From: a virus
Length of the DNA: 21,522 nt
Reading direction: 5' to 3' (one strand)
Virus record (IMG/VR): IMGVR_UViG_3300045136_000348
Span: 1-21,522 of that record
In this document: in pieces, positions 1-21,119 of the stretch
Numbering within the stretch: the stretch's first letter is position 1
Layout of the letters: every line of letters begins with the position of its first letter
Notes under the pieces: generated by a model
What the model saw: only the letters and a program-made list of their open reading frames with translations
Databases searched by the model: none
What the model was told of the DNA's origin: nothing
Program-made: the position numbers and the translations under genes

Positions 1-738
1 GATTGGCCAGTGAACGAGGCCGACCTAACCGCGCGTCATTTGTGGCTGTGCCAGCAAGCGGAATTCCGGGAGCGGATGAAGTCTGACCCGGACTATTACG
101 ACGTGAAGATTGCAGGCTGGTGGGTTTACGGGATATCGGCATGGATCGGCGGCGGTTGGTGTAGTGTCCAGCTGCCATCGGCGGGTAATGGCAATACAGA
201 TACGCACGCGCATTGCAGGCGGCCGCATCTGAACCGTAATACGGGCGTGCATCGCCAAATCGAGCGGGGGGCTCTTGGGCACACTGATTATCTGCTGGAC
301 TACTTCGATGTGCTAGCGCAGAGACTGCGCGGTGTTCGCGTCTGTTGCGGTGACTGGGAGCGGGTATGTGGGCCAACGCCAACGATCAAGTTAGGCATTA
401 CTGGGGTATTCCTCGACCCGCCTTATAGCGCAGAGGCTGACCGCGATGGCGACATATATGCGGTAGACGACTTGCAGGTTGCAAAACGAGTAAGAGATTG
501 GGCGGTGGGGCATGGCGACAACCCCGACATGAGAATTGCGCTGTGCGGGTACGAGGGCGAGCACGAGATGCCGGATTCTTGGGAATGTGTTGCGTGGAAG
601 TCTCATGGAGGGTACGGCACTATTTCGCAAGCGCCGGATTCGCGTGGTCGGCAGAACTCCAAACGCGAGCGTATCTGGTTTTCGCCTCACTGTTTGCGGC
701 CACAAAAATCAATATTCAATGCAACAATAGCTATATAA
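1..738 (+). CDS. DNA adenine methyltransferase (D12 class), 5'-truncated by the window edge
   Basis: Probable SAM-dependent N6-adenine DNA methyltransferase acting on phage DNA. The catalytic motif DPPY is encoded at 415-426 within GVFLDPPYS and is followed by RIALCGYEGEH and a GGYG segment, an arrangement I recognise from phage adenine methylases. The frame is open to base 1 and reads DWPVNEADLTARHLWL there. This looks like the interior of the protein, because the N-terminal SAM-binding part (FxGxG region) is missing. I therefore treat the gene as starting upstream of the window, not at the GTG at position 10. The TAA stop (736-738) shares one base with the ATG of the next gene (TAATG), which suggests translational coupling. 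The target sequence cannot be deduced. The family assignment is fairly secure. The role, which could be protection from host restriction or regulation of packaging, is inference. Confidence 0.85.
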   Translation, partial: DWPVNEADLTARHLWLCQQAEFRERMKSDPDYYDVKIAGWWVYGISAWIGGGWCSVQLPSAGNGNTDTHAHCRRPHLNRNTGVHRQIERGALGHTDYLLDYFDVLAQRLRGVRVCCGDWERVCGPTPTIKLGITGVFLDPPYSAEADRDGDIYAVDDLQVAKRVRDWAVGHGDNPDMRIALCGYEGEHEMPDSWECVAWKSHGGYGTISQAPDSRGRQNSKRERIWFSPHCLRPQKSIFNATIAI

Positions 739-1352
739 TGGCCCCAGCGCAGGATGCGGACGACAAAATGGCTAAGATCGCGGTGGACGCTGACGGGGTG
801 CTGGCCGATTTCGACGAAGGGTTCATCGAGATCGTTAATAAGATGTTTCCTGGGCGCATCCCCGCCAACTACGTGCATCACGATTGGGACTACTCCGAAG
901 TTCTCGCCAAGGACGAGGTGGGCAAGGTATTTTCGCGTATTCGTCACCACAATAACTGGTGGTTGGGGCTCTCCCCTCTGGGCTCAAGCGTAACCGACCT
1001 TGCGTCGTGGCTAATCTCGAATTCTGGCCACGACGTCTACGTATGCACGGCGCGCTTTCCCACGGTGGGCATGACCGTCGCCAAACAGACTGAGTGGTGG
1101 CTCAAGAGCTGCGGCCTGACGCCGGTCAATAACTTCCTAGGCATCATTGTGGTGGCGGATAGTACCCTGAAGATAGATGTCTACCGCGCCACTGGCATAG
1201 AGTACTCGATTGACGACAAGGCCGAAACGGTAGAAGCTTGCGACGCCCTGCCAGGACACAAGGCATATCTCCTCGACCAACCCTGGAACCGCACCGCTAA
1301 GGTAAAGCGCCGTGTCAAGGCGGTGGCCGAATTTCTGCGAGAGGTGCGGTGA
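738..1352 (+). CDS. HAD-family 5'(3')-deoxyribonucleotidase
   Basis: A 204-aa protein with the motifs of the NT5C-type deoxyribonucleotidases, which remove the phosphate from dNMPs in the cytosol. Motif I is DADGVLADF (Asp17 nucleophile, Asp19). Motif II is VCTARFP (Thr104). A conserved-type Lys is at 145, and motif IV is the DD at 159-160. The late LLDQPWNR segment matches the LFxQPYN element of the family. The ATG at 738 overlaps the methylase stop (TAATG) but has no Shine-Dalgarno sequence. An in-frame ATG at 768 lies 13 bases after AGGA and begins MAKIAVDADG, so the shorter form is possible. The stop overlaps the next gene. In phages such enzymes adjust nucleotide pools or remove host-type nucleotides. 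The preferred substrate cannot be read here. Confidence 0.85.
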   Translation: MAPAQDADDKMAKIAVDADGVLADFDEGFIEIVNKMFPGRIPANYVHHDWDYSEVLAKDEVGKVFSRIRHHNNWWLGLSPLGSSVTDLASWLISNSGHDVYVCTARFPTVGMTVAKQTEWWLKSCGLTPVNNFLGIIVVADSTLKIDVYRATGIEYSIDDKAETVEACDALPGHKAYLLDQPWNRTAKVKRRVKAVAEFLREVR

Positions 1353-1947: not shown

Positions 1948-2077
1948 CATAGGTCTCCTGATAACCGTCAGTATAGGGCTCCGGTTCAAAGTCGCTCCCG
2001 ATGTAGCCCTCTGCGTCTACCGCATCTCCTTCGTCATCCGAGGGGTCTGAGCCAACCCCAAGACTGCAACTGTGCAT
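1934..2077 (-). CDS. Small acidic protein, 47 aa, no Lys or Arg
   Basis: A candidate gene filling the space between the ATP-grasp gene and the lysis gene, overlapping both. The predicted peptide has 14 Asp/Glu residues and no Lys or Arg, with several aromatics (YIGSDFEPEPYTDGYQ). The ATG at 2077 lies inside the end of the ATP-grasp gene in another frame and has only a weak ribosome site. The stop at 1934 falls just inside the lysis gene, and the lysis gene's AGGAG lies in this frame. Without this gene about 85 bases would be unassigned in an otherwise gapless operon, which favours it. No family is recognised. A spacer with chance coding potential remains possible. Confidence 0.4.
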   Translation of the reverse strand: MHSCSLGVGSDPSDDEGDAVDAEGYIGSDFEPEPYTDGYQETYDDTN

Positions 2078-3293
2078 ATCGCCGCTCGATGCAGGCGCAG
2101 CAGTCGTTGCGGTACTGTAGGTCTGGAATGTCCAGCGATTTGATGCATTGCTCGACTGCATCAAACGCCTCCTTGATGCTTCCGCCTGCGCCGATTGGCG
2201 AGCCAATCACATTATACGTGCCGCCGGTAATCAGCTCGAATCCCTGCTTGGAGACGTCGTAGAGCACGAAGGATTCCAGGTGGTCAAGGTCGACTCCGCG
2301 AATGGGCACTCTGACCTTGCGGCGGCTGAATTCTGCGGAGGGATAGGGTGGCACGGATAGTCGCAAGGTAGCGGCAAACTTCGCTCGGGGCTCACTGAGC
2401 GTCGGGGCGCGGCCAATAGCAATATTGAACAGGAAATCACCGAAGCCAATAGGAAGGAGACGAGTAAGATTACAAGTACCCTCATACCCGAAGCGTGGGG
2501 TCCACTCAAGGCCCCATACATCTCCTTCAGTAGCGATCGTGTTGAGGTCCACCATTCCCACATACCCGGCCTCCTTTAGCAGCGGTCCCATCTTTTCTAG
2601 GCCCTGTTGGAAGATAGGATTCTTGCGAGCAGGCATCCATACCACGTTGCCGGCGCATCCCGTATTGGGGCCAACACCGCCGCTCATGAGTTTCTTTTCT
2701 TCCAGCGTGTGATTCAGCGCCACCCACTCGTTGCCTGTCCACCAGGCCTCGGTCGACACTTCTATGCCTTCCACAAACTCTTGTAGAACGAATGACTTGA
2801 CTTTTGCGTCAAGCCGGGTCTCGATGAAGCGGATCATGTCGGGCGCGCTCTTGGAGACGTAGGTTTGGTCCGAGGGCAGATCGTCGCCGATGGGCTTCAA
2901 CACATACCGCTTGTTATTCTTTTGGAGAAACGTCACGGCCTCTCGCGGGGAGGAGAAGGCTTCCCATCGAGGCACCTTGATGCCTGCGCGTTCCATGGTC
3001 TCTAGGCCAAAGACGCGGTCATCTTCGAGGCGGTCAGCAAGCGCCGAGCCGCCAATGGTAGGCGTAACCTTTCTGGCATCGTCGGCGGCCTCGCCCAGGC
3101 CAGAGGAGTCGAATACCACAAGATCGTACTTAGAAGGATTAGGGGCCTTGGCGAGTGGCGGCGGAATCAGGCCGCTAAGCGTGGAGGCGTCTTTGTCGGA
3201 AGCGCAAACCCAATCGACGTCGTGACCTTCTTTCTCAAGCAGATGTACGAACCATGCGCCGTCTCCCTTGACGCTCACGAGAAGAATCTTCAT
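2034..3293 (-). CDS. PurD-like ATP-grasp ligase
   Basis: A 419-aa ATP-grasp enzyme resembling glycinamide ribonucleotide synthetase (PurD) over nearly its full length. It has an N-terminal Rossmann-like segment (MKILLVSVKGDG), then the ATP-grasp core: VLKP at 131-134, VLQEFVEGIEVS at 169-180 (PurD: IEEFLDGEEAS), GVGPNTGCAG at 207-215 (PurD: GPNTGGMG) and LEWTPRFG at 262-269 (PurD: EFNCRFGDPE), followed by the C-terminal PurD-type region. Asn of the E-x-N metal site appears replaced by Thr, and the DPE after FG is not conserved, so the acceptor may not be phosphoribosylamine. The ATG at 3293 overlaps the preceding micro-gene (ATGA) and is preferred over an in-frame TTG at 3299. The family acts by forming an acyl phosphate and ligating an amine. 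The true substrate is unknown, and its position among late genes is odd for purine synthesis. Confidence 0.8.
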   Translation of the reverse strand: MKILLVSVKGDGAWFVHLLEKEGHDVDWVCASDKDASTLSGLIPPPLAKAPNPSKYDLVVFDSSGLGEAADDARKVTPTIGGSALADRLEDDRVFGLETMERAGIKVPRWEAFSSPREAVTFLQKNNKRYVLKPIGDDLPSDQTYVSKSAPDMIRFIETRLDAKVKSFVLQEFVEGIEVSTEAWWTGNEWVALNHTLEEKKLMSGGVGPNTGCAGNVVWMPARKNPIFQQGLEKMGPLLKEAGYVGMVDLNTIATEGDVWGLEWTPRFGYEGTCNLTRLLPIGFGDFLFNIAIGRAPTLSEPRAKFAATLRLSVPPYPSAEFSRRKVRVPIRGVDLDHLESFVLYDVSKQGFELITGGTYNVIGSPIGAGGSIKEAFDAVEQCIKSLDIPDLQYRNDCCACIERRYAQLQSWGWLRPLG

Positions 3294-3415
3294 GCGCAAA
3301 TCCAGTCGTCATCCTTGAGGTCCCAAAAAGGAGTAACGCCGCCGTCCCAGTAAGTGCAGGCTCCCTTCTTAGAAGGCAACCTTTTTGGCGGCTTTGGTGG
3401 CAGCGTGGGCTCCAT
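3290..3415 (-). CDS. Micro-gene, 41 aa, coupled to the ATP-grasp gene
   Basis: Candidate small gene whose TGA overlaps the ATP-grasp ATG (ATGA), the coupling seen throughout this operon. The predicted peptide begins proline- and lysine-rich (PPKPPKRLPSKKG) and ends with a Trp/Asp-rich segment containing two Cys (ACTYWDGG, then FWDLKDDDWICA). The C-terminal half does not overlap any other gene, which argues for real coding there. The start is uncertain. The ATG at 3415 lies inside the 52-aa gene and has only a weak GAG eight bases upstream. A TTG at 3379 would give 29 aa but has no usable ribosome site. No family is recognised. It could be an accessory or a substrate of the ATP-grasp enzyme, which is inference only. 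Confidence 0.45.
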   Translation of the reverse strand: MEPTLPPKPPKRLPSKKGACTYWDGGVTPFWDLKDDDWICA

Positions 3416-3527
3416 GATAGGCACTCTTTGCGGCAGGAGCAACCACATGTTTCGCGGTGAATCGTGCCACGCCAGCGTTGGCGAAAACAGGAGCAAGCAA
3501 CACAGCAACCAGAAACAGACGCTTCAT
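3369..3527 (-). CDS. Secreted cationic small protein, 52 aa
   Basis: Clear small gene: GGAGG at 3537-3533 is five bases from the ATG. The N-terminus MKRLFLVAVLLAPVFANA is a textbook Sec signal peptide, with a basic n-region, a hydrophobic core and an ANA cleavage site. Cleavage would leave about 34 residues, rich in Ala, Lys and His and almost free of acidic residues (GVARFTAKHVVAPAAKSAY, then HAATKAAKKVAF), predicted to be amphipathic and cationic. The start overlaps the stop of the 43-aa gene (ATGA). If the signal is not cleaved, it would be a single-pass inner-membrane protein. Near lysis genes it could help permeabilise the envelope, act in exclusion, or be a small antimicrobial-like peptide. 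None of these is shown by the sequence. Confidence 0.7.
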   Translation of the reverse strand: MKRLFLVAVLLAPVFANAGVARFTAKHVVAPAAKSAYHGAHAATKAAKKVAF

Positions 3528-3655
3528 TTTAACCTCCATCGCAAAATATGGTTGTTGGGCATCCGCAGATACCATGGACTATGCGCGAGGGCCCATGCTA
3601 AGAGCAGGCCATCGACGAAATCCCAGGCATCCTGGTTTGGACGTCGCCGAGGCAT
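3524..3655 (-). CDS. Micro-gene, 43 aa, Trp-rich
   Basis: Small gene filling the gap between the 80-aa gene and the signal-peptide gene. The ATG at 3655 has GGAAGG about seven bases upstream, and its TGA overlaps the next ATG (ATGA). The predicted protein starts MPRRRPNQDAW, has a hydrophobic middle (FVDGLLLAWALAH, then PWYL) and a basic end (HILRWRLK). It is not hydrophobic over a full 18-20 residues, so a single transmembrane helix is possible but marginal. The intact frame, ribosome site and exact coupling at both ends support a real gene. No family is recognised; a membrane-active lysis accessory is one guess. Confidence 0.6.
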   Translation of the reverse strand: MPRRRPNQDAWDFVDGLLLAWALAHSPWYLRMPNNHILRWRLK

Positions 3656-3670
3656 TCGTTAGCCTTCCGA

Positions 3671-3913
3671 CTAGGAACCAGTGCTAGCGTACTTCCGGGT
3701 CAGCGAGTCCGTGCGCGTCCTGGGCTTGTTGATGCCGGCGCGCAGACGGCCTGGCATCAGCGTCTCTTTCGCGGGCTTGGCGCCATCCGCAGCCCCGCCA
3801 GGCGTCGAGTACCCCTTCAGAATCATAGACCCCGCGTTCGAGCGCGAGTACTCGCTCAGCTCGATTTCGGCGATAATCTTTTGTGCCTCGGACCTTGAAA
3901 GACAAAAGCTCAT
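3671..3913 (-). CDS. 80-aa protein of unknown function
   Basis: Good small gene with AGGAGG at 3926-3921, seven bases before the ATG. The N-terminal part (SRSEAQKIIAEIELSEYSR) is predicted helical. The rest is basic and likely unstructured, rich in Gly, Pro, Arg and Lys (GRLRAGINKPRTRTDSLTRKY). It follows the 556-aa virion protein gene after 24 bases and starts the run of small genes leading to the ATP-grasp enzyme. A virion-associated or DNA-binding role would fit its basic tail, but no family is recognised. Confidence 0.65.
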   Translation of the reverse strand: MSFCLSRSEAQKIIAEIELSEYSRSNAGSMILKGYSTPGGAADGAKPAKETLMPGRLRAGINKPRTRTDSLTRKYASTGS

Positions 3914-3937
3914 AATGGTACCTCCTGTTCCATTATA

Positions 3938-5608
3938 TCACTCAGTCGGCTCGGCAGTCATTCCGGTAATGGCGCCTACCGCAGGATGCGCCGCCTGCGC
4001 CCCCTTCAGCGCCGTTCTGGCAATCCCCGCTCCAGGCTTAGGCAGCGATGTCTTCGAGATTCCCGCGGCCTTCGCTAGCCTCGCGCCTTCCTCGGCTGCG
4101 CCCTTGGGCAAGCCCTTGTCCAAACCGATCTTGGGGCCAAACTTGGACATAATTCCACTCTCGGTGGACATGCGCTGCACGATTCCCTTGGCGAGGTTGT
4201 TGGTGCCCTTCCACAGCTCGCCAAGCTGGCGCCACTCCTCGCCCAGGCCTTTTGCGTTGGCCACCGCCTCCTTGCCCGCTTCGAGTTCCTTGTCCAGTTC
4301 TCGCAGGATCGGCTCCCACTGCCCAATCTTGTAGGCGTCAAGCTTGGTCAGCATCCGCTGAATCTGGTTGTGCAGGCCATGGGCGCTGGCGTAGTCGATG
4401 AGCGTCTGCCCTGCAGGCGTTGCCCTGATCTTCTGGAGAATATCTTCGCCAATGCGCCGTATAGCGGGTTCCGTCGCTCCTTTCATTTGATTGGCCAGCT
4501 GGCCAACCTTTGGGTTAGGCTGAAGCACTTCCTTGTCCAGAAGCTTGTGCAGACGGTCATACTGGCGGCTAAGCGCGTCCAAGATCGGCTGCGTGAAGTC
4601 CGCCGCAATGCGCGAGTCTTTTACCGAGCCTCCCAGCCCCTTTTGCAGTTCCGCAGCACGCTCTGCTGCTCTGGCCGCTTTGCTTGCCGCTTCGGCGCCT
4701 CGCAGTGTCCTTGCGCCGCCGATCATGCCCTTGATGACGCCAGACACCGCAAACGGCAGCAGCGTTCCCGCTGCCATTCCTGCGTAACCTTTCAGATTCC
4801 CTTGCTCGCGCAGAGCGGCCAACTCGCGGAGGTTGAGCATGTCCTCGGCTCCCGCGGCAAGCGCTCCCATGACGCCTGGTCTCTTGTACAGGCCCTCAGG
4901 AGCGCTATGCCATGGAGCGGCTCCCCGAGTAAAGGCCTGTAATGGCGTCATCGTTCTCATCTGCTCTTGCACGCTAGGCTGACCTCCGCCTAATCCCCCT
5001 TGGGCCGTTGGAGGCGCAGACTGTTGCGCCGCTGCTGGAGTGGTAGCACCTGGAGCGGGCATTCCCGGAGCAGGTGTTCCTGGAGCAGGTGCTCCAGGAG
5101 CAGGCGTCGACGGCGCAGATGTCCCTGAGGTAGGCTTATTACGACTCCATCCCTTAGCTTTGGCCGCTTTGTATAGCTTGGGATCAATTTGAATAGAGCG
5201 GTTATCCTTGTAGACCGTGATCGACTTATCCTTGTTGGCGGGATTCTTGTCAGCCGGGACCACCTTCTCGCCTTTGTGGAGCATATAGATTCCCGTCTCG
5301 GGAACATAGTCGGTGCCCTGTTGAAAGACTCCCTTGAGCACAGGATGACGGGCGTTCAGCGCGGGGCCTGCGATAGTGTAGTCCCTGTATTGCTCCGCCG
5401 TCCGCGTGGCGTGTTCAGCTCCTGGCTGCAAGTAAGAAGGCATAGGATACCGCTGCGCCTCCAGACCTTCATTAGAGACGTTGGGCACCATCTGGGCGAA
5501 GAACTCCTGAATCCCCGGCCACGTGCCAGGCGCGGCCATTGGATTGATGTTCTCGTTCATCACGATGGCCATCGCTTTGTCGAGAGCGGATTGTCCCTTG
5601 TCAGCCAT
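3938..5608 (-). CDS. Large internal virion-like protein with PAPG repeats
   Basis: A 556-aa protein, probably a virion protein ejected with or lining the DNA path. Seen directly: a short segment YVPETGIYMLHKGEKVVPA (residues 101-119), resembling an element common near the ends of phage tape-measure proteins; a low-complexity stretch of PAPG pentapeptides (residues 166-190) and a Gly/Gln-rich linker; one hydrophobic stretch near residues 275-297 (YAGMAAGTLLPFAVSGVIKG) that could enter a membrane; and a long Ala/Lys/Glu-rich helical C-terminal half. The ATG overlaps the stop of the preceding 551-aa gene (TAATG). Position after the adaptor-like and small core-like genes matches the T7 and P22 order of ejection proteins. 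No catalytic motif was recognised. A fibre or minor tail protein is less likely. Confidence 0.65.
   Translation of the reverse strand: MADKGQSALDKAMAIVMNENINPMAAPGTWPGIQEFFAQMVPNVSNEGLEAQRYPMPSYLQPGAEHATRTAEQYRDYTIAGPALNARHPVLKGVFQQGTDYVPETGIYMLHKGEKVVPADKNPANKDKSITVYKDNRSIQIDPKLYKAAKAKGWSRNKPTSGTSAPSTPAPGAPAPGTPAPGMPAPGATTPAAAQQSAPPTAQGGLGGGQPSVQEQMRTMTPLQAFTRGAAPWHSAPEGLYKRPGVMGALAAGAEDMLNLRELAALREQGNLKGYAGMAAGTLLPFAVSGVIKGMIGGARTLRGAEAASKAARAAERAAELQKGLGGSVKDSRIAADFTQPILDALSRQYDRLHKLLDKEVLQPNPKVGQLANQMKGATEPAIRRIGEDILQKIRATPAGQTLIDYASAHGLHNQIQRMLTKLDAYKIGQWEPILRELDKELEAGKEAVANAKGLGEEWRQLGELWKGTNNLAKGIVQRMSTESGIMSKFGPKIGLDKGLPKGAAEEGARLAKAAGISKTSLPKPGAGIARTALKGAQAAHPAVGAITGMTAEPTE
5039..5116 (-). 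repeat. In-frame 15-base repeats coding Pro-Ala-Pro-Gly-X
   Basis: About five imperfect tandem copies of a 15-base unit (GCTCCTGGAGCACCT and variants on the coding strand) encode the pentapeptide series PAPGA, PAPGT, PAPGM, PAPGA inside the 556-aa virion protein. This is a proline-rich flexible or extended linker between the N-terminal region and the helical C-terminal half. Copy number is likely to vary among relatives through slippage. Confidence 0.8.
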
Positions 5609-7275: not shown

Positions 7276-7959
7276 TTAGCCTGTCGCCAACACCATAGCT
7301 GCATCCGTCGCAGCGCTGGAACCGCCACTATTACCGATCTGGCTTAGGCTGCCAAGCAACTGGCCCGCGCCGCCTATCAGCGATCCCAATCCCTGCTGTG
7401 GCACACTTGCCTTAGCGAGGGCCAGCTTGTTGCCGCCCAGCAAGATGTCTAAATAGTTCTGCACGGCCTGCTCGTACAGCTGAGCCGCGATCTGTTCTTG
7501 ATTTAGATTGACCTGTCCAAGGTAATTGCTGAGGCCATAGGCCGCCGGCGATGACATGCCTAACCCTGCGCTGCCAAACTGCTCTAGAATGTTTGCTTGG
7601 CCCTGCTGAATCTGTGGCTGCATGGCCTGAAATAGCCACTGCATCACCTGCGGGCTAAAGCCTGCCCCGCCCTGCAAAAAGTCTGCCAGCATCCCCGCGA
7701 TATAGCTTGGATAGCCCGCCTGCTTGAGCGAGTTGAGAACCTGGGGATTTGAGCCGCTAAACGGAAGCAGCGAGAATGGAGTTCCTGAAAATGCCGATCC
7801 TGCCAGGGGCATAGTCGTGCCTCCGGGCCAAGGCTCGGCGACGCCGGGCACTCCAGGTGTCGTGCTGCCAGTGCCGCCCATCACGGACGGCATGTTGTAG
7901 CCGCTAGGGTTGCCTCCGCCCCCTGCCAGGGCGCCGGGATTGAAAGGAGCTGGAGTCAT
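7276..7959 (-). CDS. Virion-associated (inner core-like) protein, 227 aa
   Basis: The N-terminal 60 residues are Gly/Pro-rich and probably flexible. The centre is helical with FGSAGLGMSSPAAYG followed by a Gln-rich helix (LNQEQIAAQLYEQAVQNYLD). This Gly-Ser-Ser-Pro-Ala pattern recurs in small inner-core or ejection proteins of podovirus-like phages, as far as I recall. The C-terminus has a glycine-rich hydrophobic stretch (GLGSLIGGAGQLLGSLSQIG) that could interact with a membrane. The ATG overlaps the adaptor gene stop (ATGA). Assignment is by gene order (adaptor, small core protein, two large core proteins) and weak sequence resemblance. Confidence 0.55.
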   Translation of the reverse strand: MTPAPFNPGALAGGGGNPSGYNMPSVMGGTGSTTPGVPGVAEPWPGGTTMPLAGSAFSGTPFSLLPFSGSNPQVLNSLKQAGYPSYIAGMLADFLQGGAGFSPQVMQWLFQAMQPQIQQGQANILEQFGSAGLGMSSPAAYGLSNYLGQVNLNQEQIAAQLYEQAVQNYLDILLGGNKLALAKASVPQQGLGSLIGGAGQLLGSLSQIGNSGGSSAATDAAMVLATG

Positions 7960-8684
7960 CGCGCACCGTACCTTCCTTGCATGACCGTCACGCTTCTCGT
8001 GTTGTATTTTTGATCACGCTCTTGCTGGAACAGCTTAACCATTATAAGTCCTGGCCTTCCGCGCTTGCCGTCGCTGGTGATTGCCTCGGGGTCTCCGTAG
8101 AGAATCTCGCGCAGGCTGTGGTACTGGTCCGTCCAGCGCTTGAGAATACAGATTCGCATCGCCGCCCCGTAGGCCACAATGTCAAGCCAGTCGCGGCCAA
8201 TGTATATTGGGTCGCTCAGGTCGGGAGTCGCGGGGAACGGGTGCTTGACCTGGTAGCGCAAGTACACGGTATAGTTGGCGTTTGGCACTGGCCCAAAGTG
8301 GAAGTTTTTGTCAAAGCGCGTAAACCACGCCGGGACTCCCAGAACCGCCGGCGCCGTCATGGTTTCTATTCCCGCAGGCGTTCGGTACCGAACAGGCGCG
8401 ACGATCGTGTTGTTAGGAGTGTCCACGAACAACGCGAAGGACTCGGGCATCGAGTATTCGTCGCCAGTGTTGACGAAGAGCGAGACAGGATAGACCGCCT
8501 GGCCGGCGGTCAGGTTGACCTGCGGCCCAGTCGATTGGAGCTCAGGAAAAGGATTGCTGTTCGTCAGCTCGTAGATCGTCTTGACAACATAACGCGCAAT
8601 CTGCGAATCAGTGACGTCGGTGCGACCCTGGAGAGCATCCAGTACGTCCTGCTTGATGTCGTTGATGGTTGCAACTTGCTGCAT
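7956..8684 (-). CDS. Head-tail adaptor-like protein (gp11/gp4-like)
   Basis: A 242-aa protein probably docking on the portal and linking head to tail. The N-terminus is helical (INDIKQDVLDALQGR, IARYVVKTIYELTN). The middle is beta-rich with LTAGQAVYPVS and a YTVYLRYQVKHP strand. The C-terminal half contains IGRDWLDIVAYGAAMRICI, the helical W-x-x-I/V-x-x-GA pattern common in podovirus adaptor proteins. Its place between the nozzle-like gene and the core-like genes fits. It lies 18 bases after the 135-aa gene with a weak ribosome site, and its stop overlaps the next ATG. The link to T7 gp11 or P22 gp4 is by pattern and size, not alignment. Confidence 0.55.
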   Translation of the reverse strand: MQQVATINDIKQDVLDALQGRTDVTDSQIARYVVKTIYELTNSNPFPELQSTGPQVNLTAGQAVYPVSLFVNTGDEYSMPESFALFVDTPNNTIVAPVRYRTPAGIETMTAPAVLGVPAWFTRFDKNFHFGPVPNANYTVYLRYQVKHPFPATPDLSDPIYIGRDWLDIVAYGAAMRICILKRWTDQYHSLREILYGDPEAITSDGKRGRPGLIMVKLFQQERDQKYNTRSVTVMQGRYGAR

Positions 8685-9140: not shown

Positions 9141-9509
9141 TCAGTAGATGATTAGGACAAACGCTACCGACGCCTGGTCACACTTCAGCGAGATCGTTCC
9201 CAGTGAGGTTTGGGTGGCCGCAGTCCACGCCGTCCCGCTATCGTATATGTGCGCCGCTGCGTTTGTCCGTACAACGCTGAATCCAAAGGGCACATGGCGC
9301 AGATTATGTTGAACAGTGAAGGCAGTGTTGGCCACGGCGGGAGTTGTCCCTGTGGCCTTGTACACCTGCATGTTCATGTCGGCGTCGGCGTTCGACGTGG
9401 TCGTCCCAAAGCTTATGTTCGACAATGTCTTAGACATCAGCTCCTGAACGTAGCGCAGAACCTGCTCGGTAGTCTGAGAGCTAAGGCCAAGCGTGCGAGG
9501 CGGCTTCAA
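9141..9509 (-). CDS. Small beta-rich tail/fibre-like protein, TTG start
   Basis: A 122-aa protein. Residues 1-30 are helical and could form a coiled coil or attachment segment (QTTEQVLRYVQELMSK). The rest is beta-rich, with GTTPAVANTAFTVQHNLRHVP followed by a strand-like C-terminus ending VAFVLIIY. The NTxFTVxHxLxxVP pattern recurs in C-terminal modules of phage fibres. It starts at TTG 9509, overlapping the previous stop (TTGA), with AGGAGG seven bases upstream; no ATG gives a better start. It is likely a virion surface protein. Confidence 0.65.
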   Translation of the reverse strand: MKPPRTLGLSSQTTEQVLRYVQELMSKTLSNISFGTTTSNADADMNMQVYKATGTTPAVANTAFTVQHNLRHVPFGFSVVRTNAAAHIYDSGTAWTAATQTSLGTISLKCDQASVAFVLIIY

Positions 9510-9967
9510 AGGACTGCCTCCTCGACTTCGCCAATCAACACGGCTTCTACGATCGACACCGGGCCGCCGCCGGCGGCGCGCGAAATGGACAGCTGCGGCC
9601 GGAAAGCGGTCAGCGTCAGGTCGATGAACTTGGTAAGGATCGCGCCGCTGGCTGCGCTCGTTCCAATGTTGAACTGCGCCGAGGCAGTTACGATGTTTCC
9701 ATTGTCGTTGGTTCCGGTTATAGTTGCGGTGATCGTTGCCGATCCAAGGTCAGTGTAGATCAGGATTATGCGGCGCACCGTCGGCACGCGTCCAGGCACA
9801 ATGTCCTCGGAGCGCCACGAATAGCTGGAGCCATCGACGGTATCGTTGAAGTTAGAAGGATCAAAAATAGAGATGAACGAGGCGCCAGTGTCGGAGGCAG
9901 AAGTAGGCACAAACAAGAAGAACGTTGTCCCCGCAAATCCTCCGTTCTCGCCAAAAGGTACCGCCAT
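9506..9967 (-). CDS. Beta-rich virion protein, 153 aa
   Basis: The product alternates hydrophobic and Thr/Ser residues (ATITATITGTNDNGNIVTAS, then FIDLTLTAFRPQLSISRA), which points to an all-beta jelly-roll or immunoglobulin-like fold, and ends in an acidic EVEEAVL. It starts four bases after the stop of the Hint-bearing nozzle-like gene with no strong ribosome site, so it probably depends on translation of that gene. Two overlapping neighbours of similar character follow. A head-fibre, tail-fibre or decoration role is likely. No enzyme motif was seen. Confidence 0.6.
   Translation of the reverse strand: MAVPFGENGGFAGTTFFLFVPTSASDTGASFISIFDPSNFNDTVDGSSYSWRSEDIVPGRVPTVRRIILIYTDLGSATITATITGTNDNGNIVTASAQFNIGTSAASGAILTKFIDLTLTAFRPQLSISRAAGGGPVSIVEAVLIGEVEEAVL
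9517..9522 (-). promoter_or_regulatory. Ribosome binding site fixing a TTG start
   Basis: A full AGGAGG lies seven bases upstream of the TTG at 9509, inside the last codons of the preceding gene (Glu-Glu of its EVEEAVL end). It supports TTG as the true start of the 122-aa fibre-like protein and coupling of the two genes. Confidence 0.75.
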
Positions 9968-9971
9968 ATGC

Positions 9972-11675
9972 CTATCCTTGGAATGGCTTTAGATTGTGCG
10001 CAAACCAGCCATTGTTTAGTCGATAGCTGTGGCCGATGTAGTCCTCGGCCTCAACTTCTAGATTGTAGACCAGGCCTTCGTAGCCACCAGTCTGCTCGAA
10101 TACCTTGCCGGCCATCACCCACTCCTCGCCGTCCTTGGAGATCATGTGCTCGAATGTAACCCATTCGTCGTTGCCCATGTGATGGAGCAAACCTTTGTAC
10201 TCGTGAACCATTGTCTTAGAGACGCGACGGAATCCTGTTAGGGTCTCCACACGGTCGCCTACCACGATCGACGCTATCGGCCTCCAACCATCATCAGTCA
10301 GCACCAGCGTATTGGGGGTAAAGCAGAACCTTCCGCCGCCGCCTCCGGGCAGGCCTCCACCGCTGTGTTGTGTGCTGTTGACTATGAGTTGCGTCGACAC
10401 CGAAATTGGTGTATCGCCAATCCAGCACTTGTAGGGAATGCCGACGGTGACATCGCTCATCTGCCACGGCGCCCAATTGTTGTCCTCTAGCGAGTAGACC
10501 CAGCACTTGGTCGCGCCGCTGGGCGTCAGGATGAACAGCATGTACACGTAGTAAGTGTAGCCCAGCGTTAGGGCCGGAACTATGACGCCTGTTGGCGGCT
10601 GCGTCGTTGTCGCGAGGTCAGCAAAGATTGCGTCGCGCGCCCCTGCGCCAATCGGCGTGAGAGCGCTTCCACTGATCTTGTATATATTTTCGGTGGAAAC
10701 GAATATGCCCATGTCGCCGTACTGCGCTATCGAAGCGGCATAGACGTTGCCTATGCCCTGCTCAGAGGCCCACAAGTGATTGAAATCAAACGGCGCGGTG
10801 CCGTTGCCGGTAGGCGATACTTCGGTGATTCCGTTTTGGCGAAAGATGTAGCCTACCCGGCCAAGAAACATCAGCCCTGTGATGAGATCAGGCACATCCA
10901 GGAAGTCCGCCGAGCCTGCGCTTGGAAATACGCTGGGATCGAACGTCGCGCCTTGCGTCCCCAGGTTAGAGCCAAACGCGCCGGCGCCAAACGGATTGAA
11001 GCCGCTGTTCGACCAGCGAACGCGTTGAGGGAATGCTCCTGTACCGCCCTGCACCCCAGCAACGATTGGCGTCTCCGAAGTCGAGGCCAGGATGAGATGG
11101 TTGTCCAGTTCGCCGATGAACTGCGCGCCGATCAGTGTCGTAGTTGACGGGGGGAGGCCGCTAACCCCTGCGCCTAAGAAGGCGATATCATTGACGGGCG
11201 TCAGGGCCGCCCCGTCCCAAGCCGACACGTGACCGTTGTTATTCGTGTAGTACAGGATGCTCTGAAACACTCGCCAGCGCACAAACGTTGCGGGGGCCAT
11301 TGCCGGCCCTCCGACCAGTGACCAGGGGTTTTGTCCCTGGGCCAGCAAATTCTGAATGCCAACGCGAAGCTGGAACATTCCATTCACCGTCCAGCAGACC
11401 GTGTGCCAAACGTTGTTGCGGCTCAGGAACGATCCGACGCCTAGAATCTGGTTACCGTCTGGAGAAGGCAGATAGGCTTTGAACTGGGGCCGCGTTCGCA
11501 GCTCGGCGTTGCGAAACATGAAGTTCAGCGTCGCGGGAGTCTGCGCCGGGCTGATTAGGTTGGGCGGCGTCTGGACGTTAAGGCCGCCATAGGGAGACGA
11601 CCAGGAGGTTGCTACGCCGCCGGCAGGAGCTGTCCAGTTGGCAGGTGAATATACGATTTCAAATGGCTTGCCCAC
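9972..11675 (-). CDS. Tail nozzle/hub-like protein with C-terminal Hint domain
   Basis: A 567-aa two-part protein. Residues 1-436 are beta-rich with repeated strand-turn units, including GLMFLGRVGYIFRQNGITEV and DMGIFVSTENIYKISG, like the beta-propeller nozzle or hub proteins of short-tailed phages (T7 gp12, P22 gp10). Then comes a Gly-rich linker (HSGGGLPGGGGGRF, 437-450). Residues 451-561 are a Hint domain: block A CFTPNTLVLTDDG, VVGDRVET, block B VTFEH, block F VYNLEVE, and terminal AHN, followed by only LKPFQG. It starts at GTG 11675 with AGGA about seven bases upstream. The family chemistry is an N-S acyl shift at Cys451. With Leu after Asn561 and no real C-extein, canonical splicing is unlikely, but self-cleavage is plausible. 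The nozzle assignment rests on gene order and pattern. Confidence 0.7.
   Translation of the reverse strand: MGKPFEIVYSPANWTAPAGGVATSWSSPYGGLNVQTPPNLISPAQTPATLNFMFRNAELRTRPQFKAYLPSPDGNQILGVGSFLSRNNVWHTVCWTVNGMFQLRVGIQNLLAQGQNPWSLVGGPAMAPATFVRWRVFQSILYYTNNNGHVSAWDGAALTPVNDIAFLGAGVSGLPPSTTTLIGAQFIGELDNHLILASTSETPIVAGVQGGTGAFPQRVRWSNSGFNPFGAGAFGSNLGTQGATFDPSVFPSAGSADFLDVPDLITGLMFLGRVGYIFRQNGITEVSPTGNGTAPFDFNHLWASEQGIGNVYAASIAQYGDMGIFVSTENIYKISGSALTPIGAGARDAIFADLATTTQPPTGVIVPALTLGYTYYVYMLFILTPSGATKCWVYSLEDNNWAPWQMSDVTVGIPYKCWIGDTPISVSTQLIVNSTQHSGGGLPGGGGGRFCFTPNTLVLTDDGWRPIASIVVGDRVETLTGFRRVSKTMVHEYKGLLHHMGNDEWVTFEHMISKDGEEWVMAGKVFEQTGGYEGLVYNLEVEAEDYIGHSYRLNNGWFAHNLKPFQG
9993..10325 (-). other. 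Hint (intein-like, BIL-type) domain coding region
   Basis: This stretch codes residues 451-561 of the 567-aa protein. It begins with Cys (TGC, 10325-10323) and ends with His-Asn (CAC AAT, 9998-9993). Length is 111 residues with no homing endonuclease insert. The next residue is Leu (CTA), so the Cys/Ser/Thr nucleophile needed for splicing is missing. This matches bacterial intein-like (BIL) domains, which cleave their N-terminal partner or pass it to another nucleophile. Reading through the TAG at 9974-9972 gives no plausible C-extein. Confidence 0.8.
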
Positions 11676-13463: not shown

Positions 13464-14414
13464 TTACGGACCGTTGCTACCCCACACGCCAATCGGGCTA
13501 GTCGCTCCAGCAGAGAACCGCTGGAACGTTATGATCTTGGTGGATCGGGTGTCGAAGTCGTCGTCGTAATCGGTGTCGATTGGATGACGGTCGAAGAACT
13601 TTAACTGGTGAGAGTCCTTCTCGGCCACTGCGAACCATGCGCTCTGCGAAGTGAAATAGTTCATCACGCGGAACTTCAAGTCTTCGCCGAGCAGCGCGTT
13701 AAGCTCGTTGTCGTTCGTGTACGGCTTGCCCGGCGAGCCGAGAATCTCTCGAGCGATGAACTTCAGCTCAGGAGGAATCAGGATATAGCGCGGCTTCACG
13801 CGCACCGGAATGCCCTGCGAGTCGACCAAACGCTCGAACTGGTTCACCATGAGCTGCACGCCGGTGAACGAGAGATCGACATCTGGCGATGGCCGATTGG
13901 GATAGGTTCCCGCGGCGTAGATGACGTTGGCCAGACCGGGACCAAGATTAGTGGCCGCTACGCCGCCAAGCAGAGGATGCTGCGTGTTGAACAGCGAAAC
14001 CTGGTCGATCGACAGAACCGTGGAGAAGCCCAGGTTGAACACGTTGGCAGCCACCTGCTCGCGCGCGAACATTGCCGACCGCGTATGGGCCTTGGGCACT
14101 TGCCTGAGGATGCCATACTGGTCGTCCTCGATCAGTTCCCAGGTCGCGCGAGAGCCAAGCGCGTAGGTCAGGTGGAGATAACGCTTGGTGCCGCCCTGGA
14201 CCATGTCATCGTAGATTGCCGCCGATCCCTCGGGCTTCTCAGGCATCGCCCCAACGCCAGCCATCTCGACTTCGTCCTCATACGCCTGCGATGAGGTCTC
14301 GATGTTGAAGACGTGGGTATATTGCTCCTCGCGCATCTGAAGATCGAGGAAGTGCAGGAACCAGTGATGAACACCAGGTGCCAGTGTTTGTGCAAATTGA
14401 CCACGAACCATCAT
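13464..14414 (-). CDS. Major capsid protein (HK97-fold type)
   Basis: A 316-aa protein forming the head shell. Recognised from its place after the scaffold-like gene and from its sequence. The N-terminus (QFAQTLAPGVHHWFLHFL) and LTYALGSRATWELIEDDQYG segment resemble Mu gpT-like and related capsid proteins. It also has an N-x-QHPLLGG element and a C-terminal segment with SAWFAVAEKDSHQLKFFDRHP, a pattern common in phage coats. AGGAG lies ten bases before the first of two adjacent ATGs (14414 and 14411). Length fits a small HK97-fold coat without a built-in delta domain, consistent with a separate scaffold gene. Confidence 0.8.
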   Translation of the reverse strand: MMVRGQFAQTLAPGVHHWFLHFLDLQMREEQYTHVFNIETSSQAYEDEVEMAGVGAMPEKPEGSAAIYDDMVQGGTKRYLHLTYALGSRATWELIEDDQYGILRQVPKAHTRSAMFAREQVAANVFNLGFSTVLSIDQVSLFNTQHPLLGGVAATNLGPGLANVIYAAGTYPNRPSPDVDLSFTGVQLMVNQFERLVDSQGIPVRVKPRYILIPPELKFIAREILGSPGKPYTNDNELNALLGEDLKFRVMNYFTSQSAWFAVAEKDSHQLKFFDRHPIDTDYDDDFDTRSTKIITFQRFSAGATSPIGVWGSNGP

Positions 14415-16849: not shown

Positions 16850-17185
16850 CTACTTAGACTCCTTTTTTCTAAAGTAATCCCGCTGCCACTTTTCGTGCAA
16901 CTCTGGTAGACTTTGCAAATCCTCAATGATATTGTACTCCCCCGCGGCCTCGTCACGGGCGGATGCCGGCAACCGGGTATCGCGGAGCTTAGCGAGGGCT
17001 GCCTCCTGCAAAAGGCGCAAGGCCCGAGAGATAGCCTTCCACGTTTCCGAACGGAACGCGGTCTCCACCTCCGCCGGCGGCAGGCGCATTACCTCCCCCC
17101 AAGGATGGTTGTTGAGAAGCGCCTCCTGCTGCTCCTCCCTCCTTTGGGACGGGCGCTTCGGGGACGTAGAGATCGGGTTGGTCAT
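16850..17185 (-). CDS. 111-aa helical protein overlapping the portal gene
   Basis: A mostly helical protein (FRSETWKAISRALRLLQEAALAKLRD, then IIEDLQSLPELHEKW). I recall similar short proteins with a ...LEELLSLPE... end beside phage terminase or portal genes. The ATG at 17185 has AAGGA eight bases upstream. Its first 197 bases are shared, in another frame, with the end of the portal gene, whose tail there is low complexity (Gly/Ala/Pro). The sequence therefore looks shaped mainly by this gene. A TTG two codons earlier is less likely. Its function is unknown; an assembly or terminase-related accessory is possible. Confidence 0.65.
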   Translation of the reverse strand: MTNPISTSPKRPSQRREEQQEALLNNHPWGEVMRLPPAEVETAFRSETWKAISRALRLLQEAALAKLRDTRLPASARDEAAGEYNIIEDLQSLPELHEKWQRDYFRKKESK

Positions 17186-18938
17186 AGCCAAAGTCCTTCA
17201 AAACCTTTCTGTGAAGCTGTTCGCTCGCTACCACCCGCTTGATGAGGTATTGCTTGACCTCGGGCGGCACGATGGGGTTGCCGATCGCCTGCATTACCTG
17301 GGATATTGCCGTGTAGAAGCGTTCCATCAATCCAGCGATGAGCAAACCGGTCTGCTTGTCAACTTCCCGGTTTAGGCTGCCAGTGGCTGCTCGAATTGGA
17401 ATGCGCAGCCGATTGCGCTCAAACTCCTGGAAAGCCTCCTGCAACAGCGGGGCGTCCAGGCCAAACATCTGCTCCTTGCCCCCTGTTCCGATACGCCCAT
17501 AGATAGCGGTCAGCGCCGAGCCAAGCATGATGTGGGCATGGCGAAACTCTGCCGTGGCGAATCCCACCACCGAGTTATTCTCCTGCATCACCGCCAGCGT
17601 TCCTTGGCTCGAATACACGTTGGGGCGCTTCATTACACCGCCTGTGCCCGCGCCAGAGATTGCCGGAGTTATTCCGGCGCGTCGGGCCACCAGGCCAAGC
17701 GTCATCTCCTCGTTCTTGAAAGTCGAAGGATAGACGTCGCCGACCTGGAGCGGCTCAATCTCGTCCTTGTCGCCAACCAGGACGGCGGTGGGGAACAGTT
17801 CCATGTTGGCGTCGAGAGCCCGCGCCCTTGGCGACACGCGGAGGGCACGAACGTTGGCCACGGTCGCGTTGTCTAGGCGCTGATTGTGCGTTGTCGAGAG
17901 TTCTTCCTGATAGTTTTCGAGCAGCTCCGAATAGCCGTGCCCGTACATTCCGTCTGTGCGATAGCCGAGCTTTGCGCGCTTGATTGGAAGCTCGTTCTTT
18001 GGCAGGAAATTGAATATCTTGCGCAGAACCGTTCGAGTTCTCTCGTGATAGCTGTAAACAAGGCGGTACTTGTGGCCGCCGTTCCACCACGGGAAATAAC
18101 ACTCGTAGATGTCCCATTCGGCGGTAACGTCGGGATAGCCGCCAGTGGCGATGCCCTGGTCCGTCAGCTCCTCGCGCTGTCCCTCGGAAGGATTGGGTCT
18201 GTCGGGCGAGCTCAAAATCTTCTCCACTGCTTGCCGATCGTATATGTCGCGGTGCGCCCGGTCCTCAAGAGCGACGCGCTTCAGGGGGTGGCGGACGGCC
18301 ACAAAGTCTGAGTCTTCGAGCGTCTGCGCTGTGGGATCGGCCAGGACGTCCTCGTGGCGAAGCTTGCACACCCTAGGGCCAAAGCGGACAGTTTCGTCCC
18401 TGCCCCTGATTCTCTTGCCGCTTTCGTCGTATCCCACCACTACCGCTTCCTCGACGTGTTCAAGAGCGATCTTGACGAAGGCTGTGCCTAGCTTGGCGGC
18501 GTCAGTGAACCACAAGGCTTCGACGAATTGGAGGTTCAGCTCGTCAGGTTCTATGCCGACGATGTCCATGAAGTTCTCGATGACTTGGCGGCGCTGTTCC
18601 AGCTTCTTCCTGGTTTCGGTGTCCTCGGATTTCACGAAGTTTTGGAAGGGCCATAGCGGATGCGTCGCATAGATCAGGCCCATGACGCGGGCGACCATCG
18701 TGTCGACGGTCTCGCCTACCACCTGGACGACTGTGTTCGCGGCGTTGGGAAAAGGGAAGTTTCGGGTCATCTCCGCGGGAGTGCCCAGGTAGATGCGACG
18801 CCACTTGGGCAGTCGGTCGGTATGCAGCTCGCGGTGGGCCTGCTTAAGCCAGCGAAGGTGATCCTCGATGTGGTGCTCGATCGCGGTCTCGACTTCGGCG
18901 CTAAACTTTACATTGACCGTCTGGAGCTTGTTCGGCAT
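16989..18938 (-). CDS. Portal protein
   Basis: A 649-aa protein forming the dodecameric DNA gate at one head vertex. Recognised by size, its place after terminase and its sequence: an N-terminal helical region with FPFPNAANTVVQVVGETVDTMVARV, a wing-like beta region (EWDIYECYFPWW, YRLVYSYHERTRTVL), YGHGYSELLENYQEELSTTHNQRLDN (a stem-helix type element) and a C-terminal helical region ending DFGYDQPDLYVPE. This resembles the long portal proteins of P22-like and related podoviruses. The last 50 residues are a Gly/Ala/Pro-rich tail overlapping the 111-aa gene. AAGGTG lies about five bases before the ATG, and the first 38 bases overlap the preceding gene. Confidence 0.85.
   Translation of the reverse strand: MPNKLQTVNVKFSAEVETAIEHHIEDHLRWLKQAHRELHTDRLPKWRRIYLGTPAEMTRNFPFPNAANTVVQVVGETVDTMVARVMGLIYATHPLWPFQNFVKSEDTETRKKLEQRRQVIENFMDIVGIEPDELNLQFVEALWFTDAAKLGTAFVKIALEHVEEAVVVGYDESGKRIRGRDETVRFGPRVCKLRHEDVLADPTAQTLEDSDFVAVRHPLKRVALEDRAHRDIYDRQAVEKILSSPDRPNPSEGQREELTDQGIATGGYPDVTAEWDIYECYFPWWNGGHKYRLVYSYHERTRTVLRKIFNFLPKNELPIKRAKLGYRTDGMYGHGYSELLENYQEELSTTHNQRLDNATVANVRALRVSPRARALDANMELFPTAVLVGDKDEIEPLQVGDVYPSTFKNEEMTLGLVARRAGITPAISGAGTGGVMKRPNVYSSQGTLAVMQENNSVVGFATAEFRHAHIMLGSALTAIYGRIGTGGKEQMFGLDAPLLQEAFQEFERNRLRIPIRAATGSLNREVDKQTGLLIAGLMERFYTAISQVMQAIGNPIVPPEVKQYLIKRVVASEQLHRKVLKDFGYDQPDLYVPEAPVPKEGGAAGGASQQPSLGGGNAPAAGGGGDRVPFGNVEGYLSGLAPFAGGSPR
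17194..17198 (-). promoter_or_regulatory. Ribosome binding site for the overlapping 111-aa gene
   Basis: AAGGA lies eight bases before the ATG at 17185, inside the portal gene (codons of its KDFGYD region). It supports internal translation of the out-of-frame 111-aa protein and decides its start over the TTG at 17191. Confidence 0.6.
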
Positions 18939-19490: not shown

Positions 19491-21119
19491 TCAGTAGCCA
19501 GTGATTGATTTTCGTCCGGCAATCCAGCGCTCGCGGCGTTGCCGCACGATATCGAGCACTCGCTTAGCGTGAATGGCGTTCCAGGTTTGGGTCGCGTACC
19601 CGAGACAGTCAAGGATATCAACGGTTCGGCTCCCAGGGTAATCGTAATATTCATTGAGGAAAAGAGATTGGTCCCGTCGAACCCAAAATCGTCCCTCCCG
19701 AAACAGAGGTTCAAGAGACTCGATGCGAGTTCGCTTAGCGTTTTTTCCATGCTCACTTTTAAGCTCTCGGACATGGAGTTTCCGGTTCTCAATCTTGTTG
19801 CGGTACTCGATATGATACTTCAAATACTTCTGGGCCGCTACGGTCTCCAACCAGAATTCTGACATATTCCAGCGCTCCGCCATCTTGTAGATGTTTCCCA
19901 TGAGATCGTCATAACTCATGGAGGCCGCCCAAATGTCCAGCAAGTAGATGCGATCGGTGTCAGGGTCAAAGCCCGTAACTATAATTGCATGGCGCGCCCG
20001 GCCTTCGCTTCCGGCGTGGTTCGGATCGACCACCATGCTGCGAATGAGGGTTCTGGGATCAATGTCCTTTATGGTCTCTCCGTCTTTTACGTCGTGGCGC
20101 AACCAGTAGCTTCCCACTTTTATTGGCGACTCGCAAAGCGAATAGAAGCGCAGCCAGTCCTTGTTGAAGATGCATTCCTCGGGATTGACCGCAAGGTTGA
20201 GGTATTGGTGCGAGAAGATGTACGGGCCTTGCACTTGGCGAATCTTTTCCAGGTCTTCGACGCTAAACTCCTCAGGGAAAATGGGGCGCCCGGCGGGATG
20301 CTCGGAGCAGCAGCCGCCCAACGCGCCATGGCTTTCGATTCTGAACTCGCGCTGGTTTTCCCGAATCCACCCACTGAGGTCATTGGGAGACCACCGATTG
20401 TTTACGACTGTCCAGTTAGCGTCGCGGAAGGAGACGAGCGCGCCAATCAGGAGTTTGTGGTAGTCGATGGTCTTGGCCATCACGAGATCGGATTCGAGGG
20501 CGTCTTTTCCCACAACGTCGTCCTCGTTGACATCGTGGTAGTGACGGCTTTGAAGAGCGCCGCCCACGCCCAGGTAATCGAATGTGCCTTCGCCGTTTGG
20601 GCCATGCGAGGCCGCTTTGTGCGTTTTGCTCTCGTTGGTCCAGGAGCATTTTGAGTCCGGGATGATTTCGGGGAAGCAGAACCTGAAAAGGGCGTTGTCC
20701 TTGTAGTGCCAGTCGATGCGCGCGCCGATCAGGACAGCGTTGCCAATGACTTCGCTCACGGTCAGCGTGCGCCGGCTGGGATCGTGGCACTTACGCATCC
20801 AGGTGATCCAGGCGTCGTCGTAGCCTAACTCGCGCATAGCGGCTTCGTCGCTGTCGTTGAATGGCAGGGCGCGCCACATGGTTCGGCCCTCCGTGACCAT
20901 GACGGTCTTGAAGTGATCGCGGGGCAGCTCGATCAGGTAGCGCGGTACGTCGGTTTCCAGGCGCTCTAGGATAGGCTTGTGGAAGGTGGGAGAGAGCTTG
21001 CTGCGCTGGAGAGTGGATTTTATGAAGAAGTAGAGCGAGCCAAGCGAGTTGAGACGCATGGCCAGCTTGAATTTGTATGTGTCCTTGGGATCAGGAACGT
21101 CGAGGACACGCCATTTCAC
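19491..21119 (-). CDS. terL: Terminase large subunit
   Basis: A 542-aa packaging motor: N-terminal ATPase and C-terminal RNase H-like nuclease that cuts concatemeric DNA. The ATPase P-loop region is LIELPRDHFKTVMVTEG (62-78), a divergent Walker A with PRDHFKT in place of the usual G-x-x-x-x-GK. A Walker B-like acidic cluster is HDVNEDD (195-201). Nuclease acidic residues are Asp365 in MVVDPNH, Glu425 in WLETVAAQ and Asp501/Asp504 in VDILDCLGYA. It starts at GTG 21119, overlapping the previous stop (GTGA); the nearby ATG at 21114 is out of frame. Length is within the family range. No small terminase gene was seen in the window. Confidence 0.87.
   Translation of the reverse strand: MKWRVLDVPDPKDTYKFKLAMRLNSLGSLYFFIKSTLQRSKLSPTFHKPILERLETDVPRYLIELPRDHFKTVMVTEGRTMWRALPFNDSDEAAMRELGYDDAWITWMRKCHDPSRRTLTVSEVIGNAVLIGARIDWHYKDNALFRFCFPEIIPDSKCSWTNESKTHKAASHGPNGEGTFDYLGVGGALQSRHYHDVNEDDVVGKDALESDLVMAKTIDYHKLLIGALVSFRDANWTVVNNRWSPNDLSGWIRENQREFRIESHGALGGCCSEHPAGRPIFPEEFSVEDLEKIRQVQGPYIFSHQYLNLAVNPEECIFNKDWLRFYSLCESPIKVGSYWLRHDVKDGETIKDIDPRTLIRSMVVDPNHAGSEGRARHAIIVTGFDPDTDRIYLLDIWAASMSYDDLMGNIYKMAERWNMSEFWLETVAAQKYLKYHIEYRNKIENRKLHVRELKSEHGKNAKRTRIESLEPLFREGRFWVRRDQSLFLNEYYDYPGSRTVDILDCLGYATQTWNAIHAKRVLDIVRQRRERWIAGRKSITGY

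What the first reader, a model, noticed from the sequence alone, without database searches (positions are those of the whole stretch)
9972..11675. Hint (intein-like) domain fused to the C-terminus of a tail nozzle-like protein
The 567-aa protein ends in a complete 111-residue Hint domain: Cys451 in CFTPNTLV, VTFEH, VYNLEVE, and final His-Asn at 560-561. It has no endonuclease. A Gly-rich linker joins it to the beta-rich tail part. The residue after Asn is Leu and only six residues follow, so ordinary splicing is not expected. Hint domains of this kind (BIL type) are known to cleave the N-terminal partner through a thioester, which can also be transferred to an outside amine or thiol. The inference is that the nozzle protein may be matured, or covalently joined to a partner, during tail assembly. 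I do not know of this arrangement as a described tail-maturation mechanism.
Basis: partly seen in the sequence, partly recalled or inferred. Interest (0 to 1): 0.8.

Follow-up and report, generated by a model that had tools for sequence, protein, structure and literature searches.

The report
Self-cleaving domain on phage tail nozzle
A short-tailed phage carries a small intein-like self-processing domain, with every catalytic residue intact, on the end of its DNA-injection nozzle protein; relatives show that such domains have landed repeatedly on the outer tail proteins of unrelated phages, which suggests a little-known way to mature a virus tail, though no activity has been measured.

Summary
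In detail: the 567-aa ORF is on the minus strand (11675..9972), and residues 451-561 are a complete Hint domain (AlphaFold2 pLDDT 94; Z 12.8-13.4 to Vint and bacterial intein-like domains). Cys1, TxxH and His-Asn are present; there is no endonuclease, and Leu follows Asn. The rest is a podophage nozzle beta-propeller (matches: Pan3, Pa223, P22 gp10, SU10).

Three things are added. (1) In this lineage the nozzle is encoded as two adjacent genes. The Hint sits on a Gly-rich tail exactly at that split, and the next gene (9506-9967) encodes the missing C-terminal part. (2) Only 3 of about 43 split nozzles carry a Hint. The three lie on separate branches of the nozzle tree and carry different Hint types, and an 85%-identical sister lacks one, so gain or loss is recurrent. 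(3) The window Hint belongs to a phage family of 14 C-terminal Hints on distal tail proteins (nozzles, tail hubs, lectin/CBM fibres). All keep Cys1, TxxH and HN, and none has C/S/T after Asn.

Best reading: an A-type-BIL-like auto-processing domain that removes itself from the nozzle. Splicing back the last six residues, or transfer to a partner, is not excluded. No activity was or could be tested. New variant of a known kind.

The parts
9972..11675 (-). Nozzle-Hint fusion ORF, 567 aa, GTG start
10401..11675 (-). Nozzle N-part (about residues 1-425): start of platform domain plus beta-propeller
   Evidence: phrog_3287 virion structural protein E 4.5e-8; Foldseek/VIA matches to podophage nozzles Pa223, SU10, VP1, Pan3, P22 gp10
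10326..10361 (-). Gly-rich linker GGGLPGGGGGRF (residues 439-450)
   Evidence: sequence; Gly-rich tails also end 11 Hint-less relatives
9993..10325 (-). Hint domain, residues 451-561 (Cys451, Thr507-x-x-His510, His560-Asn561), 111 aa, no endonuclease
   Evidence: Pfam Vint/Hint_2; AlphaFold2 pLDDT 94, pTM 0.86; Foldseek and VIA matches
9975..9992 (-). Six residues after Asn (LKPFQG); their last codons also hold the Shine-Dalgarno-like CAAGGA of the next gene
   Evidence: comparison of tails
9506..9967 (-). Nozzle C-part gene (153 aa), starting 4 nt after the stop of the fusion ORF; homologous to the C-terminal domain of nozzle proteins that are single chains in relatives
   Evidence: phmmer against L006 (E 6e-20) and against separate downstream ORFs in L003-L017; present next to the N-part in most nozzle loci

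Best explanation
This is a catalytically intact, A-type-BIL-like Hint domain on the Gly-rich C-terminal tail of the larger half of a split podophage nozzle protein. Most likely Cys451 attacks the Phe450 carbonyl to give a thioester, which is resolved by hydrolysis or another nucleophile, and Asn561 cyclises to cut on the other side. The Hint then leaves, and the mature nozzle half (about 450 residues) ends in a Gly-rich tail like those that Hint-less sister phages encode directly. The domain is a portable module that has been gained repeatedly by distal tail proteins. Shown: the domain, its fold, the complete set of catalytic residues, the nozzle identity by fold, the split gene and the recurrence. 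Inferred: that it cuts, when it cuts, and that the cut matters for tail assembly.
For: Hint identity and fold. Nozzle identity. Fourteen non-redundant C-terminal Hints all keep Cys1, TxxH and His-Asn at about 32-63% identity, and none has Cys/Ser/Thr after Asn; two of the three nozzle Hints (L112, L115) also surfaced in searches by nozzle homology, so their intact sites do not depend on the Hint search. Partners are distal tail proteins: tail hubs (Phage-tail_3, Rcc01698_C), CBM/LamG/PA14 fibre-like proteins and nozzles. The nozzle tree needs three separate Hint changes. L113 and L115 are 85% identical in the nozzle part, without and with Hint. Hint-less sisters end in bare Gly-rich tails. Published BILs lacking a +1 nucleophile mainly cleave (PMC7664689).
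Against: No cleavage was observed and no virion proteomics exists for this uncultured phage. Conserved Asn with a non-conserved 3-6 residue tail is not obviously needed if N-terminal cleavage alone were the purpose. 111 aa is shorter than the 130-155 aa quoted for BILs (PMC9185962). Most related nozzles do without a Hint, so it is not required for nozzle function in general.
Confidence: 0.55

Rival explanations
1. True protein splicing: the Hint is a mini-intein inserted a few residues before the native stop of the nozzle half, and it ligates the Gly-rich segment to the last residues (GGGGGRF-LKPFQG) without a nucleophilic +1 side chain.
For: All three nozzle Hints, of different Hint types, are followed by x-[KR]-P (LKPFQG, NRPVKP, IKPNIN) as are some Hint-less tails (TKPLP, NPRPPRTIF, GGRPINLL); other C-terminal Hints 0/11 (Fisher p 0.003). 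Window and L109 tails align at DNA level (p about 0.016). His-Asn is fully conserved. The listed title of Aranko 2013 reports trans-splicing by a BIL without nucleophilic side chains (reference list).
Against: +1 is never C/S/T in 14 members. The L115/L113 tails do not align better than shuffles (p 0.29). L112 and L115 nozzles are related, so the tails are not fully independent. BILs of this kind mostly cleave.
Confidence: 0.2
2. Covalent transfer: the thioester hands the nozzle half to another amine or thiol, for example the N-terminus of the separately encoded nozzle C-part, re-joining the split nozzle, or to another tail or host component.
For: The Hint lies exactly at the point where the ancestral single-chain nozzle (L006, L018, L020) is split, and the C-part is the next, closely coupled gene.
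Against: Most phages with the split nozzle have no Hint and presumably assemble without a covalent link. The C-part has no N-terminal Cys, and its start does not differ in a special way between Hint-carrying and Hint-less phages. Hubs and fibres with the same Hint are followed by different small genes.
Confidence: 0.1
3. Inert or structural: an appended Hint that no longer cuts, acting as a folding or trimerisation aid, a capping domain, or a hitchhiking element tolerated in a flexible tail.
For: A flexible Gly-rich tail is a permissive site; presence and absence vary among close relatives.
Against: Catalytic residues are intact in all 14 C-terminal members while the rest of the sequence has diverged to about a third identity. 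If removal were unimportant, decay would be expected, because only 3-6 residues follow.
Confidence: 0.15

Closest known systems
A-type bacterial intein-like (BIL) domains (Amitai 2003; structure 2lwy, Clostridium thermocellum)
   Same: Horseshoe Hint fold (Z 12.8, rmsd 1.9, 30% identity, residues 1-111), N-terminal Cys, TxxH, terminal His-Asn, no C/S/T needed at +1, no endonuclease
   Different: 111 aa instead of 130-155; on a phage virion protein rather than the variable bacterial proteins described for BILs; only six residues follow; no activity measured
Vint domain (PF14623; structure 8r2c, Tetrahymena)
   Same: Best sequence and fold match (E 3.7e-6, Z 13.4)
   Different: Vint follows VWA-Vwaint in eukaryotes and is described as lacking the later motifs (PMC2362128); the phage domain has the terminal His-Asn
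Class 1 mini-inteins, including phage inteins
   Same: Fold and catalytic blocks A, B, F, G
   Different: No +1 Cys/Ser/Thr; sits in the last residues of a structural tail protein, not inside an essential active site; no homing endonuclease
Podophage nozzle proteins (SU10 gp17, P22 gp10, Pa223)
   Same: Beta-propeller core matched over residues about 31-420
   Different: Here the nozzle is split into two genes and its larger half carries a Hint
Auto-cleaving C-terminal domains of phage tail fibres and tailspikes (intramolecular chaperones; from my own knowledge)
   Same: C-terminal domain on a tail protein expected to cut itself off
   Different: Unrelated fold and chemistry

Membership tests
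Hint superfamily | Horseshoe Hint fold | tested here: met
   AlphaFold2 pLDDT 94; Foldseek E to 1.9e-6, only Hint/intein/BIL among significant hits; VIA Z 10.7-13.4
A-type BIL | N-terminal Cys, TxxH, C-terminal His-Asn | tested here: met
   Cys451, Thr507-Phe-Glu-His510, His560-Asn561; invariant in alignment A3
A-type BIL | No obligatory C/S/T at +1; no endonuclease | tested here: met
   Leu562; 111-residue domain with no insert; 0 of 14 C-terminal Hints have C/S/T
A-type BIL | Typical length 130-155 aa (PMC9185962) | tested here: not met
   111 aa; so described as BIL-like, not filed as a member
A-type BIL | Autocleavage in vitro | not testable with these tools
   needs expression
Class 1 intein | +1 Cys, Ser or Thr and splicing | tested here: not met
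   Leu at +1; splicing itself not tested
Vint | VWA-Vwaint partner in a eukaryotic protein | tested here: not met
   Partner is a phage nozzle
Podophage nozzle protein | Beta-propeller with split platform domain, hexamer on the adaptor | tested here: inconclusive
   Propeller fold matches nozzles best, but the model is of middling quality (pLDDT 64) and general propellers score close (Z 17-18.6); SU10-type portal and adaptor genes nearby; hexamer not testable

The most novel reading that the evidence does not exclude
Autocatalytic Hint processing (excision, splicing or ligation) is a recurrent maturation step of distal tail proteins across unrelated phages. In this phage it acts at the seam of a two-piece nozzle, possibly re-joining the pieces covalently.
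Probability: 0.25. Interest if true: 0.85.

Novelty: new variant of a known kind. Interest (0 to 1): 0.6.

Why it matters
Inteins and BILs are usually discussed as selfish elements in enzymes or as processors of bacterial secreted proteins. A family of endonuclease-less Hints with intact active sites, placed after Gly-rich linkers at the ends of nozzles, tail hubs and fibres, would mean that phages use this chemistry on the virion itself. It gives a simple, directly testable prediction (virion nozzle about 117 residues shorter than its gene) and offers very small natural Hints (about 103-120 residues) as tools.

Tried and rejected
Class 1 intein: rejected on the +1 residue. Hint unique to this phage: rejected, since a linker-plus-Hint DNA pattern and profile scans found a family. 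Frameshift joining the two nozzle genes: not supported; the downstream frame has a stop 24 nt before its ATG and a plausible ribosome-binding site. Single origin of the nozzle Hints: the nozzle tree needs three changes; the Hint tree puts the L115 Hint with a hub Hint (L103, 100/98 set), but sisterhood of the window and L115 Hints is not formally rejected (p-AU 0.11), and long branches make that tree weak. No match to the Hint or the whole protein was found in 50,697 named phages; a related class I Hint gave one weak partial match. No class I relative was confirmed in the GTDB genome contigs. The C-part profile and nozzle profile found no PDB sequence relatives. The PDB sequence search with the single Hint was uninformative. 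DNA-level proof that the tail after Asn is native: weak (p 0.016 for one pair, 0.29 for the other). Literature searches found no description of Hint or BIL domains on phage tail proteins in the open-access library; subscription papers on BILs could not be read. In one step of my reasoning I began recalling a known phage tail protein sequence from memory; it was dropped and used in no tool call or claim.

Full report
The window is a fragment of an IMG/VR viral contig with a podophage head and tail module on the minus strand: terminase (19491-21119), SU10-type portal (16989-18938), capsid (13464-14414) and SU10-type adaptor (7956-8684). The finding's ORF is on the minus strand, 11675 to 9972, 567 aa, GTG start. 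A 12.2 kb stretch of another contig (L002) is 100% identical over 12,188 bases, so the architecture is not a one-off sequencing error.

The Hint domain is real. Residues 451-561 match Vint (E 3.7e-6 on the domain alone, at Pfam's cut-off) and Hint_2. AlphaFold2 gives pLDDT 94. The model matches Vint 8r2c (Z 13.4), the C. thermocellum BIL 2lwy (Z 12.8, rmsd 1.9, 30% identity) and many inteins over residues 1-111. Cys451, Thr507-x-x-His510 and His560-Asn561 are the expected catalytic residues. Leu562 is not a nucleophile.

The partner is a nozzle. Residues 30-411 match phrog_3287, a virion structural protein. A model of residues 1-440 (pLDDT 64) has podophage tail or portal-tail proteins as its first seven Foldseek hits: Pa223, SU10, VP1, Pan3 and P22 gp10. 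VIA Z is 20.5 to Pan3 and 18.2 to P22 gp10, although unrelated propellers reach 17-18.6. The SU10 nozzle has a platform domain built from both ends of the chain, with the propeller between (PMC9509320).

The nozzle is split. In relatives L006, L018 and L020 it is one chain of about 500-550 aa; in the window and in most relatives the C-terminal domain is a separate gene directly downstream (window 9506-9967). By analogy with SU10, the C-part is probably the second half of the platform domain (inference). The split falls in a Gly/Pro-rich linker, which belongs either to the start of the C-part or to the end of the N-part. Fourteen N-parts end in Gly-rich tails, and three of these carry a Hint (window, L112, L115); about 29 without such a tail carry none. 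The nozzle tree requires three changes of the Hint state. L113 (no Hint) and L115 (Hint) are 85% identical in the nozzle part. The L112 domain is very divergent: its C-terminal motif passes the NCBIfam intein_Cterm cut-off, while hhalign to the family is only partial.

The window Hint belongs to a family of C-terminal Hints (alignment A3). The others sit on tail hubs with Phage-tail_3 and Rcc01698_C domains (L079, L080, L085, L086; L103 has Phage-tail_3 only) and on proteins with CBM, LamG or PA14 domains (L078, L081, L100), plus less clear partners (L083, L090, L105). Nearly all have a Gly-rich linker before Cys1 and 3-6 residues after His-Asn (exceptions: L105 with 26 residues after and no Gly linker; L090 preceded by another Hint). 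All 14, counting L112, keep Cys1, TxxH and His-Asn; +1 is L, A, Q, I, G, L, V, M, V, Y, N, F, L, I. The regular expression reports the first T..H in a range; for the window the true block B, from the alignment, is TFEH.

Mechanism. With these residues the first step (N-S acyl shift at Phe450-Cys451) and the last (Asn561 cyclisation) are both possible. Published BILs without a +1 nucleophile predominantly cleave (PMC7664689). Because only a few residues follow the Hint, failure to cut would cost nothing unless removal itself mattered, so uniform retention of the active site argues that cutting is selected (inference). The mature product would then look like the Gly-tailed nozzle halves of Hint-less sisters. 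Splicing is the main rival: the three nozzle Hints are all followed by x-[KR]-P, found also in 4 of 11 Hint-less Gly tails and in 0 of 11 other C-terminal Hints, but DNA-level support is weak and two of the three nozzles are related. Transfer to the C-part or to another partner is possible but has no specific support.

Wider pattern. The same pattern search also found Hints with Gly-rich flanks near the N-terminus of large tail-tip-like proteins and in tape-measure proteins. So Hints in Gly-rich stretches of phage tail proteins may be common, but only the C-terminal family was studied here.

Verdict: observation confirmed, interpretation partly supported; a new variant of a known kind; interest moderate to high because it is recurrent and easily tested, but no activity is shown.

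Noticed in passing
window 2034-3299 (-): An ATP-grasp protein with a GARS_A (PurD-like) domain (Pfam E 5e-12) sits in the tail/lysis end of the phage structural module; its role there is unclear.
   Followed up: no
window 498-1352 (+): A 5'-deoxynucleotidase-like (NT5C) reading frame on the opposite strand to the structural genes.
   Followed up: no
[quoted passage not shown]
   Followed up: partly
L041 and L063; L090: Two Hint domains in tandem in one phage protein; L090 lies on a 463 kb viral contig.
   Followed up: no
L022/L075 and L028: Hint domain after a Gly-rich linker in a tape-measure protein (TMP_3, E 1e-26 in L022).
   Followed up: no
L078, L081, L083 and L080, L086: Two sets of small genes (76-102 aa), alike within each set, start within about 15 nt downstream of the Hint-carrying fibre and hub genes.
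   Followed up: no
L002 and L030 (contigs 3300045107_000208 and 3300045107_000233): Two different phages from the same metagenome both carry C-terminal Hints of this family, on different tail proteins.
   Followed up: no
L112 (629 aa ORF 2731-4617): A nozzle with a highly divergent Hint-like domain ending SHN-IKPNIN; only its C-terminal intein motif reaches a curated cut-off.
   Followed up: partly
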